From the NCBI RefSeq assembly GCF_000264495.1, contig NC_017954.1:62001-126000 (forward strand): 64,000 nt of DNA, given 5' to 3'. Positions 21,341 to 48,226 of this stretch are shown here, in pieces. Position numbers and translations under genes: made by a program. The notes below the pieces were generated by a model that was given only the letters and a program-made list of their open reading frames with translations, was not told the DNA's origin and made no database searches. Within the stretch, counting starts at the first letter, position 1. Every line of letters begins with the position of its first letter. This DNA is from Thermogladius calderae 1633 (lineage in GTDB: Archaea; Thermoproteota; Thermoprotei_A; Sulfolobales; Desulfurococcaceae).

Positions 21341-21378
21341 ACCGTTTGTCCCTTGACGTTCATTCCAATTAATTTTCA

Positions 21379-21404
21379 CTCGGTCGCGTCGCTCGGTCGC
21401 GTCG
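21379..21404. repeat. 13-base tandem duplication
   Basis: CTCGGTCGCGTCG is present twice head to tail (21379-21391 and 21392-21404), at the 3' boundary of tnpB-tail relic A. Confidence 0.9.
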
Positions 21405-21600
21405 AGGGACTTCCGCCTCGCCCACAGGTCACGCGCGATCACTATGGGTTCACGGGCGGCGGTCGAGCCCAACGGCACGGGGCTCCCATCTAGGTTGAGG
21501 CCCGCGGGGCTTGGAGCAGTGCTCCCACCGCCCCGCTGGAGCGCCTTGACGATCGAAGGTGAACGGAGGCAGAGCTTATAAACTTTACCTCTTACCACCA
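21379..21600 (-). mobile_element. tnpB-tail relic, copy A
   Basis: Intergenic block between rpiA and the PNGase-like gene. In the minus-strand frame it reads AGLNLDGSPVPLGSTAARE followed by PIVIARDLWARRKSLDATE, which resembles the C-terminal tail of crenarchaeal TnpB proteins. On the plus strand 21462-21491 matches the tnpB 3' end at 46142-46171 in 29 of 30 bases. The same block also aligns along most of its length with the relic at 47975-48226. There is no upstream catalytic part, so it is not a working tnpB. A perfect 13-base tandem repeat closes its left side. Confidence 0.6.
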
Positions 21601-45908: not shown

Positions 45909-46053
45909 TCAGGCGGTGGAGGAGAATCCCACGCTTATTACGTAGGACTCCCCGCCCTCGCTCATTACTATTTTGAGCTTGTGTTTGAGGTAGCCCGGAG
46001 GAGACACGCCGTTAACCGAGACCGCTACGAGCGTTTCCCCATCCACGGTGCTT
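45909..46053 (-). other. Coding-like fragment downstream of tnpB
   Basis: Minus-strand frame after the tnpB stop reads TVDGETLVAVSVNGVSPPG, then YLKHKLKIVMSEGGES and ends YVISVGFSSTA before TGA. It looks like a beta-rich protein tail without a start, so it could be the 3' part of a gene split by the element, or chance reading within the element's 3' region. Confidence 0.3.
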
Positions 46054-47340
46054 TTAATTGGTTTCAATTACTTTTAATTCCGTGGGTGGGGTTGGCCCTT
46101 GGTGCGGGTTCACTAGCTTCACCCGCACCTCATGGGGCCCCGTCGAGCCCAACGCCACGGGGCTCCCATCTGCGGTCAGGTGCTTCAACCCTATGTTTAC
46201 GGCCCCGACGACGTCCCTGTCTAGGGTCAGCCCGTTGCTCAGCCTGGCCAGCCTTAGGACGACCTTGGCTACCCTCACCCTCCTCCCTCTCACCGCAACG
46301 CGGATCACAGAGGGGGCGTAGCCCTTGATGGGCTCCCCGCTGAAGGGATCCCTCGAGGAGGAGTACGCCTCCGGCACCTCGACGACGTGTATGGGCTTGT
46401 TGTCCAGTACCTCCACCAGCTTCGAGACGCTCCACTGGTGGATCCTGTGCCTGAGGTTGTTGCTCCCCGCCCTGCTAACAAGCCTTCTCTTGCCCTTGTG
46501 AACATTTCCAACAACCACGACGGCGCTGTTTATATAAGCCAGCTCCTCGATGAACCTGGCGACCTTGTAGATAATGTCCGTCTTCCTCTCCCCCTCCCTC
46601 AGCTTCCTAAGTGCTTTCTTCACGCTCCTATCCTTTGTCGACTTGCCCCCAGTTATTCTCTTCCTCCTCTCAGAGTAGGCAATAACTATCCTACCTAGGT
46701 TAGTTTCAATTCTGTAGACGTCGCCGAGCCTTCCGTTCCTGAATACCGCCAGCGTGACGTTGTTCTCATTAACATCGACAGCAATGACATTGTTAGGGTT
46801 GTAGGAGACCTCGAAAACCCTCCTGAACGTCAAGTATACGAGAATCCTCTTACCAGCGGGCTTGAGCTTGAGTTCACTAGACAGTTTCCACCCACCGTAG
46901 AGATACCTCACCAACTGTCTAGTATACCTCAGGTTAAGCCTAATCCAGCCCCTATGAGTCCTGAGCTCCACGTCACCACCAACCAGCCTCCAATCCTGCG
47001 AGTCAGAGTAGGTCACCGTGATGTTCTTCACCACCGGCTTGTCGCCCTGCGCGAGCCCCTTCTTCTTCAACCTCAGGAAGCTCCTAGCCCTCCTGACCGC
47101 GTCGCGGTAGCAGCCCTTGATCACCCTGGTCGGTAGCCAGGGGTACTCCTCCCTGAACCTGCTGTAGAACACCCTGTGTAGGGTGGCCTGCGAGGCGTTG
47201 TGCTCGACCGCGTATTCGACCATCTCCTGGAGCATGGCTCTGTATGCTTCAAAGACCTCCCTAAGCGCTCGCCTGCCAGCACTATTAACCCAGCCTTCTA
47301 AGACTACTGTCCTCTTAAGGGTCTTTAACAGCTTGCTCAA
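46054..47340 (-). CDS. tnpB: IS607-type TnpB without RuvC-II Glu or zinc finger
   Basis: 428 residues. Transposon-encoded RNA-guided nuclease family. The helical N-terminal half (EAYRAMLQEMVEYAVEHNASQ, EYPWLPTRVIKGCYRDAVRRA) and wedge-like strands are intact. RuvC-I Asp is at 189 (IAVDVNENN). The strand where the RuvC-II Glu belongs reads AVVVVGNVHKG, Gly 278-Asn 279 instead of Glu-Asp. The CxxC zinc knuckles between RuvC-II and III are replaced by SSSRDPFSGEPIKGYAPS. RuvC-III Asp 376 (LTLDRDVVGAVNI) is kept. So nuclease activity is doubtful unless another acidic residue substitutes. TTG start overlaps the tnpA remnant, as in IS607. Confidence 0.85.
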   Translation of the reverse strand: MSKLLKTLKRTVVLEGWVNSAGRRALREVFEAYRAMLQEMVEYAVEHNASQATLHRVFYSRFREEYPWLPTRVIKGCYRDAVRRARSFLRLKKKGLAQGDKPVVKNITVTYSDSQDWRLVGGDVELRTHRGWIRLNLRYTRQLVRYLYGGWKLSSELKLKPAGKRILVYLTFRRVFEVSYNPNNVIAVDVNENNVTLAVFRNGRLGDVYRIETNLGRIVIAYSERRKRITGGKSTKDRSVKKALRKLREGERKTDIIYKVARFIEELAYINSAVVVVGNVHKGKRRLVSRAGSNNLRHRIHQWSVSKLVEVLDNKPIHVVEVPEAYSSSRDPFSGEPIKGYAPSVIRVAVRGRRVRVAKVVLRLARLSNGLTLDRDVVGAVNIGLKHLTADGSPVALGSTGPHEVRVKLVNPHQGPTPPTELKVIETN

Positions 47341-47521
47341 CGGCCTCCACCACCTTCCTGTACTTGCGGCTACGCTTGCCGTAGATTTTGCCGGCGAAGC
47401 TGGTGACGATCGCCATTAGGTCCTCGACTAGCTCCTGGTAGTAGTCTTTGGGCTCCTGGTCGAAAACGACTACTACTCTCACACCATATGCCTCGAAGAG
47501 CTTCTCGAGATAGGTAAAGCC
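47315..47521 (-). pseudogene. tnpA: C-terminal remnant of IS607 serine recombinase (tnpA)
   Basis: Minus-strand frame from 47521: GFTYLEKLFEAYGVRVVVVF, DQEPKDYYQELVEDLMAIVT, SFAGKIYGKRSRKYRKVVEA then VEQAVKDP and TAA. These are the end of the catalytic domain and the arm helix of IS607-family serine recombinases. The N-terminal HTH and the catalytic serine part are absent; the frame begins abruptly at the junction with the VWA-type gene fragment. Its tail overlaps the tnpB TTG start by 26 bases. Confidence 0.75.
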
Positions 47522-47894
47522 TGTCGGCGAACAAGCAGTCTAGGATGTCGTTCACCACGGCGTCGGCGGCGATGTTGGAGACCATGCTAACCGTCTGCGG
47601 GTCGAGGTCGCTGAACATCCGCTTCAGCTCCTTGGTCATGCCGACGTGGTCGAAGACGATGTGCAAGAGGACGTGGGAGAGGACATAGGGCTCCGTGTCC
47701 TTGAAGTCCGCGACACGTGGCGTTAAGGATATCGCCTTCCCGTCTGTCCACGCTGGAGCCGGCGGTTCGTAATCTGGTACTATGAAGACCTCGGTTTTCT
47801 TTAGTAATTCGGCGAGGATTGGCAAACCCCCCGTCAGCAGGCTCTCCACCGACTGCTCGTACAAGGCCCTGCCTAACTTGTAGAGGTCGTCCAC
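47521..47894 (-). pseudogene. Interrupted VWA-like metallopeptidase-domain gene (DUF2201 type), 5' part
   Basis: From GTG 47894, with GGAGGGAGAGGG directly upstream, the frame encodes ~124 residues: IVPDYEPPAPAWTDGKAISL, then YVLSHVLLHIVFDHVGMTKEL with an HxxxH-x-x-x-x-H zinc-like site, and VSMVSNIAADAVVNDILDCLF. This is the N-terminal metallopeptidase-like half of DUF2201/VWA proteins, which usually pair with a MoxR ATPase. At ~47521 the sequence switches frame into tnpA, so the VWA half has been lost or displaced by the insertion. The ORF continues out of frame into tnpA sequence, but that tail is not real protein. Confidence 0.7.
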
Positions 47895-47974: not shown

Positions 47975-48226
47975 CTACCCCTGCGAGACATGCCTTGAGA
48001 CGCCGCTCGCCCCCAGAATGCTGTTTATAGTCCCCTCTAGGGTCCTCCGCCTCGTCCACAGGGTTTTTGACACCCCCGCGGGCTCACGGGCGACCGTCGA
48101 GTTCAACGACGGGGGACCCCCGTCCAGGGGTAGCCCGCCTAGGCTCGGAGCAGCACCTACACCGCCCGGGCGGCCCGGTAGCCTCTCAAACACTCGGCCC
48201 CGACCATCTGTAAAAATTTTCCTCAA
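47975..48226 (-). mobile_element. tnpB-tail relic, copy B
   Basis: Minus-strand reading gives GRPGGVGAAPSLGGLPLDGG, PPSLNSTVAREPAGVSKTLW and TRRRTLEGT, which lines up residue by residue with relic A (LDGSPVPLGSTAAREP, DLWARRKSLDAT). On DNA the shared backbone on the plus strand includes TCCGCCTCG-CCACAGG, TCACGGGCG, GTCGAG and GGAGCAG, with the same spacing as relic A. Like relic A it contains only a tnpB C-terminal tail. It lies ~80 bases upstream of the interrupted VWA gene. Confidence 0.55.

What the first reader, a model, noticed from the sequence alone, without database searches (positions are those of the whole stretch)
46054..47340. TnpB missing the RuvC-II glutamate and the zinc knuckle
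RuvC-I Asp 189 and RuvC-III Asp 376 are intact, but the RuvC-II position reads VVVVGN instead of V-E-D, and the CxxC pairs are gone (SSSRDPFSG). The gene is otherwise full-length with no stops, so it seems maintained. It may be a catalytically dead, guide-RNA-binding TnpB, which would make it a candidate RNA-guided regulator like the dead TnpB repressors described in bacteria, or its glutamate may have moved elsewhere, as happens in some TnpB lineages.
Basis: partly seen in the sequence, partly recalled or inferred. Interest (0 to 1): 0.65.

Follow-up and report, generated by a model that had tools for sequence, protein, structure and literature searches.

The report
Archaeal TnpB with relocated catalytic glutamate
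This hyperthermophile gene looks like an inactive RNA-guided DNA cutter, but its missing catalytic glutamate has moved to another spot in the active-site region across the whole family, so it is probably a working, zinc-free cutter from a jumping gene rather than a dead regulator.

Summary
The sequence observation is correct. ORF 46054-47340 (minus strand, 428 aa) is a TnpB with RuvC-I D189 and RuvC-III D376; the RuvC-II glutamate position is G278 and the zinc cysteines are gone. In 43 relatives from Desulfurococcales to Sulfolobales, G278 and E324 are both invariant; in 32 canonical sister TnpBs the two positions read E and P/A/S. Across the alignment exactly one acidic column is lost (278) and one gained (324). 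E324 sits just after predicted RuvC strand β5, six residues before the lost zinc finger: the 'Ealt' position of Fanzors and, by inference, of the 'RII-r5' TnpBs, one of which cleaves dsDNA. The clade has one origin (100/99 support), median dN/dS 0.14, and a guide-RNA scaffold overlapping the tnpB 3' end with 19 compensating base pairs. Most copies sit next to an IS607 serine-recombinase tnpA. The window copy is 5'-truncated (tnpA remnant, left end lost) but keeps tnpB, scaffold and right end; a full-length copy lies elsewhere in the genome. Best explanation: an RNA-guided nuclease with relocated glutamate and no zinc finger. Cleavage and active-site geometry were not tested.

The parts
46054..47340 (-). 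tnpB ORF, 428 aa, TTG start
   Evidence: fold matches to Cas12f, TnpB and Fanzor2
46774..46776 (-). codon of D189, RuvC-I catalytic Asp (AVDVNENN)
   Evidence: invariant in 43/43 relatives, with GAT and GAC codons
46507..46509 (-). codon of G278, where the canonical RuvC-II Glu would be
   Evidence: Gly in 43/43 of the clade with all four Gly codons; Glu in 32/32 canonical sisters
46369..46371 (-). codon of E324, the relocated RuvC-II glutamate (VPEAYSSS), right after predicted strand 319-323
   Evidence: Glu in 43/43 with GAG and GAA codons; Pro/Ala/Ser in 32/32 sisters
46213..46215 (-). codon of D376, RuvC-III catalytic Asp
   Evidence: 39/43; exceptions are L046 (His) and three copies that are truncated or appear frame-shifted in this region
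46219..46359 (-). region replacing the zinc finger: no cysteines, predicted long beta-hairpin (strands 342-351 and 355-366)
47318..47521 (-). 3' remnant of IS607 tnpA (last 68 of 209 codons); tnpA 5' part and element left end deleted
   Evidence: 100% identical to aa 142-209 of TnpA of the full-length copy in the same genome
46031..46170 (-). guide-RNA (reRNA/omegaRNA) scaffold: four helices, overlapping the 3' end of tnpB
   Evidence: 31 pairs, 95.5% of cells paired, 19 pairs with compensatory changes; RNAalifold finds the same helices; single-sequence z -6.06
46010..46030 (-). right-end boundary and expected guide segment (T/CGTAGCGGTCTCGGTTAACG)
   Evidence: homology to dozens of copies stops at about 46030; the guide has no second match in the genome at up to 3 mismatches
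47522..47894 (-). 5' part of the host gene that abuts the truncated element
   Evidence: same junction in a same-genus genome, 94% nt identity
45909..46028 (-). short coding tail beyond the right end, possibly the 3' part of the interrupted host gene (inference)
   Evidence: reading-frame inspection only

Best explanation
The gene encodes an IS607-type TnpB, an RNA-guided DNA endonuclease whose RuvC active site has been rearranged. The RuvC-II glutamate was lost from the end of strand beta-4 (E to G278) and replaced by a glutamate at the end of strand beta-5 (P/A/S to E324), so that D189, E324 and D376 form the metal-binding triad. The zinc finger was lost in the same lineage and replaced by a zinc-free hairpin. 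The change happened once, in an archaeal TnpB lineage with a D-x-N-E RuvC-I motif. The protein should bind a guide RNA made from the 3' end of its own gene and the right end of the element (scaffold 46031-46170), whose roughly 20-nt guide is the flanking DNA, and cut matching unoccupied sites to keep the element in the genome. Shown here: the residue swap, its monophyly, purifying selection, the conserved guide-RNA scaffold and the IS607 context. Inferred: that E324 reaches the active site, that the enzyme cuts DNA, and that the window's own truncated copy is still expressed.
For: Exactly one acidic column lost (278) and one gained (324) between 38 clade members and 32 sisters. 43/43 invariance with synonymous codon change. 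E-x6-(first zinc ligand) spacing is identical to the Fanzor 'Ealt' site. Predicted strands 273-279 and 319-323 end at G278 and just before E324 (AF2 mean pLDDT 82), and the fold matches Cas12f, TnpB and Fanzor2 structures. The tree gives one origin at 100/99 with the motif columns left out. Median pairwise dN/dS is 0.14. tnpA lies next to most copies, with full-length copies in this genome and in G030. The guide-RNA scaffold covaries. An RII-r5 TnpB and Fanzors with a moved glutamate are active nucleases in the literature (PMC10278001; PMC10432273).
Against: No coordinates were available, so the distance of E324 to D189 and D376 was not measured. No clade member has been assayed here. The zinc finger, conserved in the sister TnpBs and reported for ISDra2 TnpB and SpuFz1, is absent. 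The window copy has lost tnpA and the left end, and its middle third was exchanged with a divergent relative, so this copy could be on the way out even though its ORF is open.
Confidence: 0.82

Rival explanations
1. Catalytically dead, guide-RNA-binding TnpB working as an RNA-guided transcription repressor (TldR-like).
For: Canonical RuvC-II glutamate and zinc finger are missing; the guide-RNA scaffold is conserved; the window copy has lost most of tnpA.
Against: A new invariant acidic residue appears exactly at the known alternative site; D189 and D376 are retained; the family stays linked to IS607 tnpA and occurs as scattered multi-copy elements; the guide matches nothing else in the genome.
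Confidence: 0.07
2. The family is active, but the window copy is a decaying relic: a 5'-truncated IS607 copy with an ORF that has not yet broken.
For: tnpA N-terminus and left end deleted; the same truncated junction exists in a sister species; many broken relatives exist in the order.
Against: tnpB and the scaffold are intact and both ends of the tnpB/right-end sequence are identical to the full-length copy; dN/dS against that copy is 0.20; the middle exchange kept all catalytic positions.
Confidence: 0.25
3. Another acidic residue fills the RuvC-II role, for example E192 of the DxNE motif or D374/E374 next to D376, and E324 is conserved for another reason.
For: E192 is invariant in clade and sisters; 374 is Asp or Glu in 40 of 43.
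Against: E192 was already present in sisters that also have the canonical Glu, so it does not compensate; 374 is Lys in two members; E324 is the only acidic residue gained with the loss.
Confidence: 0.06

Closest known systems
TnpBs with rearranged RuvC-II (RII-r3, RII-r5 clades; named in Nety et al. 2023, PMC10278001)
   Same: Canonical RuvC-II Glu lost while the other catalytic aspartates stay; RNA-guided TnpB; one RII-r5 ortholog shown to cleave dsDNA. That the '5' refers to strand beta-5 is my recollection, not checked.
   Different: Whether this archaeal clade falls inside the published RII-r5 group could not be checked (the census paper is not held). This clade also lacks the zinc finger and has a D-x-N-E RuvC-I motif.
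Fanzor / pro-Fanzor proteins with Ealt (Yoon et al. 2023, PMC10711439; Saito et al. 2023, PMC10432273)
   Same: Glu placed six residues before the first zinc ligand position; IS607 association (pro-Fanzors); RNA-guided.
   Different: Fanzors have a DPG RuvC-I motif and a zinc finger; this clade has DVN/DGN/DIN and no zinc finger. Yoon's search pattern required CxxC pairs, so it would have missed this clade.
Canonical archaeal DxNE TnpBs (for example the paralogue at G000:C1:1122597-1123796, L003)
   Same: Same RuvC-I motif, IS607 tnpA, related guide-RNA scaffold (model R1 finds it at E 3e-21).
   Different: Canonical E at position 278, P/A/S at 324, zinc ligands kept; 34-36% identity.
TldR, nuclease-dead TnpB repressors (PMC13418256)
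   Same: Missing canonical RuvC residue; conserved guide RNA.
   Different: Catalytic glutamate relocated rather than lost; association with transposon tnpA rather than host cargo genes.

Membership tests
RNA-guided TnpB (IS200/IS605, IS607) | TnpB fold (WED/REC + RuvC) | tested here: met
   AF2 model matches TnpB, Cas12f and Fanzor2 structures, Foldseek E 1e-14 to 5e-10; NF040570 match below cut-off, TIGR01766 above
RNA-guided TnpB (IS200/IS605, IS607) | Association with tnpA in an insertion sequence | tested here: met
   IS607 serine recombinase next to most clade members; full-length in this genome's second copy; 3' remnant in the window
RNA-guided TnpB (IS200/IS605, IS607) | Guide RNA from the tnpB 3' end and right end | tested here: met
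   Covarying 140-nt scaffold ending at the element boundary; expression not tested
RNA-guided TnpB (IS200/IS605, IS607) | Canonical D-E-D RuvC triad | tested here: not met
   E replaced by G278; see the rearranged-RuvC-II rows
RNA-guided TnpB (IS200/IS605, IS607) | Zinc-binding TNB domain | tested here: not met
   Zinc-ligand cysteines absent across the clade; 3 scattered Cys in all 38 clade members in this region, against 3.7 per sequence in the sisters
Rearranged RuvC-II TnpB (Ealt; likely RII-r5) | Canonical Glu absent, Glu six residues before the first zinc-ligand position | tested here: met
   E324 followed by AYSSSR, then D331 aligned with the first Cys
Rearranged RuvC-II TnpB (Ealt; likely RII-r5) | Phylogenetic placement within the published RII-r5 clade | not testable with these tools
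   The TnpB/Cas12 census paper is not held; no reference sequences available
Fanzor / pro-Fanzor | DPG RuvC-I motif together with Ealt | tested here: not met
   RuvC-I reads DVN/DIN/DGN in all clade members
TldR (nuclease-dead TnpB repressor) | RuvC catalytic residues lost without replacement | tested here: not met
   E324 gained as G278 replaced E; D189 and D376 kept
TldR (nuclease-dead TnpB repressor) | Loss of tnpA linkage and gain of a conserved non-transposon partner gene | tested here: not met
   tnpA linked across the clade; the window copy alone lacks full tnpA; neighbour conservation was not surveyed systematically
TldR (nuclease-dead TnpB repressor) | Guide directed at a host promoter or gene elsewhere | tested here: not met
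   20-nt guide matches only its own position at up to 3 mismatches; shorter seed matches were not searched

The most novel reading that the evidence does not exclude
Hyperthermophilic archaea independently evolved the Fanzor-type RuvC active site in a TnpB that also gave up its zinc finger, and this nuclease serves in trans a set of protein-free mini-elements that carry only a left end and a guide RNA.
Probability: 0.4. Interest if true: 0.55.

Novelty: new variant of a known kind. Interest (0 to 1): 0.42.

Why it matters
Surveys that judge TnpB activity only by the canonical glutamate, or that require CxxC pairs next to the moved one, would call this whole archaeal clade dead or miss it. The clean one-for-one swap with close canonical sisters, one in the same genome, makes it a good natural test of how an RNase-H-type active site can move a catalytic residue. 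A small, probably thermostable, zinc-free RNA-guided nuclease would also be useful as a tool.

Tried and rejected
Rfam: nothing meaningful over the element, only sub-threshold chance matches. Sequence search of the PDB with the clade profile gave no TnpB/Cas12 match, so catalytic positions were mapped through canonical archaeal sisters and a mixed profile. Viral contigs: no relatives; plasmids: one distant Pyrococcus record. Direct measurement of the E324-D189-D376 distances was not possible because models come without coordinates. Phylogenetic comparison with Fanzor/pro-Fanzor sequences was not made because none could be fetched. TAM: the bases left of the left-end tip (AGGCTGT) show no obvious common motif by eye, so no TAM is claimed. 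The dead-regulator reading was rejected on the one-loss/one-gain result.

Full report
What is there. The ORF at 46054-47340 lies on the minus strand, starts with TTG, has 428 codons and no internal stop. Profile matches identify a TnpB (NF040570 guided_TnpB E 4e-18, below its curated cut-off; TIGR01766 5.6e-12, above it). The AF2 model (mean pLDDT 82, pTM 0.71, 23-sequence alignment) matches Cas12f, ISDra2 and ISFba1 TnpB and mimivirus Fanzor2 structures. D189 and D376 sit at the RuvC-I and RuvC-III aspartates; VVVVGN puts G278 at the RuvC-II position; the zinc ligands are absent.

The genome itself settles part of the question. It holds three TnpB genes: the window copy, an 88% identical second copy, and a 34-36% identical paralogue (L003) with canonical RuvC-II (VMERLG) and the sequence CPVH...C in the zinc region. 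Relatives were collected from the same order and phylum and from named genomes (Desulfurococcales, Acidilobaceae, Staphylothermus, Thermosphaera, Metallosphaera and others).

The swap. In 43 family members aligned and counted, position 278 is always Gly (all four Gly codons used) and position 324 is always Glu (GAG and GAA). In 32 canonical sisters 278 is always Glu and 324 is Pro, Ala or Ser. Scanning all alignment columns, exactly one acidic position was lost (278) and exactly one gained (324). E324 is followed by six residues and then the position of the first zinc cysteine, which is the 'Ealt' spacing that Yoon et al. give for Fanzors and their prokaryotic relatives (PMC10711439). In the model, strand 273-279 carries G278 near its end and strand 319-323 ends just before E324; by the general RNase H fold (established knowledge) these correspond to neighbouring strands beta-4 and beta-5. 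Distances were not measured because no coordinates were given.

Origin and selection. A maximum-likelihood tree built without the motif and zinc columns puts all 38 intact relocated-glutamate proteins in one clade (100/99), among canonical archaeal TnpBs that share the D-x-N-E RuvC-I motif. Because Fanzors carry DPG instead, the archaeal relocation probably arose independently of theirs; this is inference, as no Fanzor sequence was in the tree. Pairwise dN/dS has a median of 0.14 over 131 pairs, and is 0.20 between the window copy and the second copy.

The element. The second copy has a full-length 209-aa serine-recombinase tnpA in front of tnpB, and the G030 copy a 215-aa one; tnpA sequences lie next to most clade members. 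The window copy keeps only the last 68 codons of tnpA (47318-47521); the rest of tnpA and the left end are gone and the junction abuts another gene. The same junction is seen in a same-genus genome, where the contig ends inside the tnpA remnant, so the truncation is older than that species split. The right end is at about 46030: similarity to dozens of copies stops there. The two copies in this genome are identical at both ends but about 25% different over roughly 46406-47005, a recombination patch.

The guide RNA. The last 140 nt of the element (46031-46170) overlap the tnpB 3' end and form four helices. In 28 sequences 95.5% of pair cells are standard pairs (80% in shuffles; 32-49% when partners are slid), and 19 of 31 pairs show changes on both sides. 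RNAalifold finds the same helices without being told. The scaffold is related to that of the canonical sisters (model R1 finds the L003 scaffold at E 3e-21). The guide expected from the flanking DNA matches nowhere else in the genome at up to 3 mismatches, as expected for a selfish element's own-site guide and not suggestive of a repressor aimed at another gene.

Function. Nety et al. report clades with rearranged RuvC-II (RII-r3, RII-r5) and that one RII-r5 ortholog cleaves dsDNA (PMC10278001). Fanzor nucleases, which carry the moved glutamate (PMC10711439), are active DNA endonucleases (PMC10432273). Together with tnpA linkage, purifying selection and the conserved guide RNA, an active RNA-guided nuclease with triad D189/E324/D376 is the best explanation. 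Features of TldRs (acid lost without replacement, loss of tnpA linkage, guide to a host gene) were tested and not met. Whether the window's truncated copy is itself expressed is open.

What is new. Relocation of the RuvC-II glutamate is a known phenomenon, so this is not a new kind. What looks new, on the limited literature available, is a whole archaeal IS607 clade that combines the relocated glutamate with loss of the zinc finger and a D-x-N-E motif, sharply separated from canonical sisters, one of them in the same genome. The census of TnpB diversity could not be read, so the clade may already be listed there.

Side observation. With the scaffold model, reRNAs outnumber TnpB genes in several relatives (G030: 22 reRNA matches against 6 TnpB matches). 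G030 carries five copies, 90-99% alike, of a roughly 210-bp unit made of a left-end-like sequence and a reRNA with different guides, probably non-autonomous mini-elements, similar in idea to the 'standalone ghost loci' mentioned for Fanzor (PMC10432273).

Noticed in passing
window 21342-21490, minus strand: A second reRNA scaffold of the canonical-sister type (71 bits, E 2.5e-18) with no TnpB gene found at that place: a solo reRNA or the remnant of another element.
   Followed up: partly
window 48003-48124, minus strand: A weaker reRNA match (37.8 bits, E 7.9e-9) within a short frame resembling the C-terminal end of canonical TnpB (LDGGPPSLNSTVAREP...TLEGTINS): a relic of a second, older element next to the truncated one; a similar frame is present in same-genus genome G186.
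   Followed up: partly
L191-L195 (G030:C1, about 26919, 386628, 33587, 377938, 821527): Five 90-99% identical units of about 210 bp with a left-end-like sequence and a reRNA but no protein, each followed by a different guide: MITE-like guide-RNA mini-elements.
   Followed up: partly
L122+L123 (own genome, across the numbered origin): The full-length second IS607 copy sits inside a gene resembling a GPN-loop-type GTPase; the N- and C-terminal parts flank it and a middle part appears to be missing.
   Followed up: no
window 46406-47005 versus the second copy: The two copies are identical on both sides of a roughly 600-bp patch that differs by about 25%: recent exchange with a divergent relative. 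The patch covers D189 and G278 but not E324 or D376.
   Followed up: partly
L043:2495-4285: A clade member whose ORF runs on past the usual end to 597 codons, with a coiled-coil-like extension.
   Followed up: no
L046:2477-3796: A clade member with His in place of the RuvC-III Asp (D376H) in an otherwise intact ORF: possibly a truly inactive copy.
   Followed up: no
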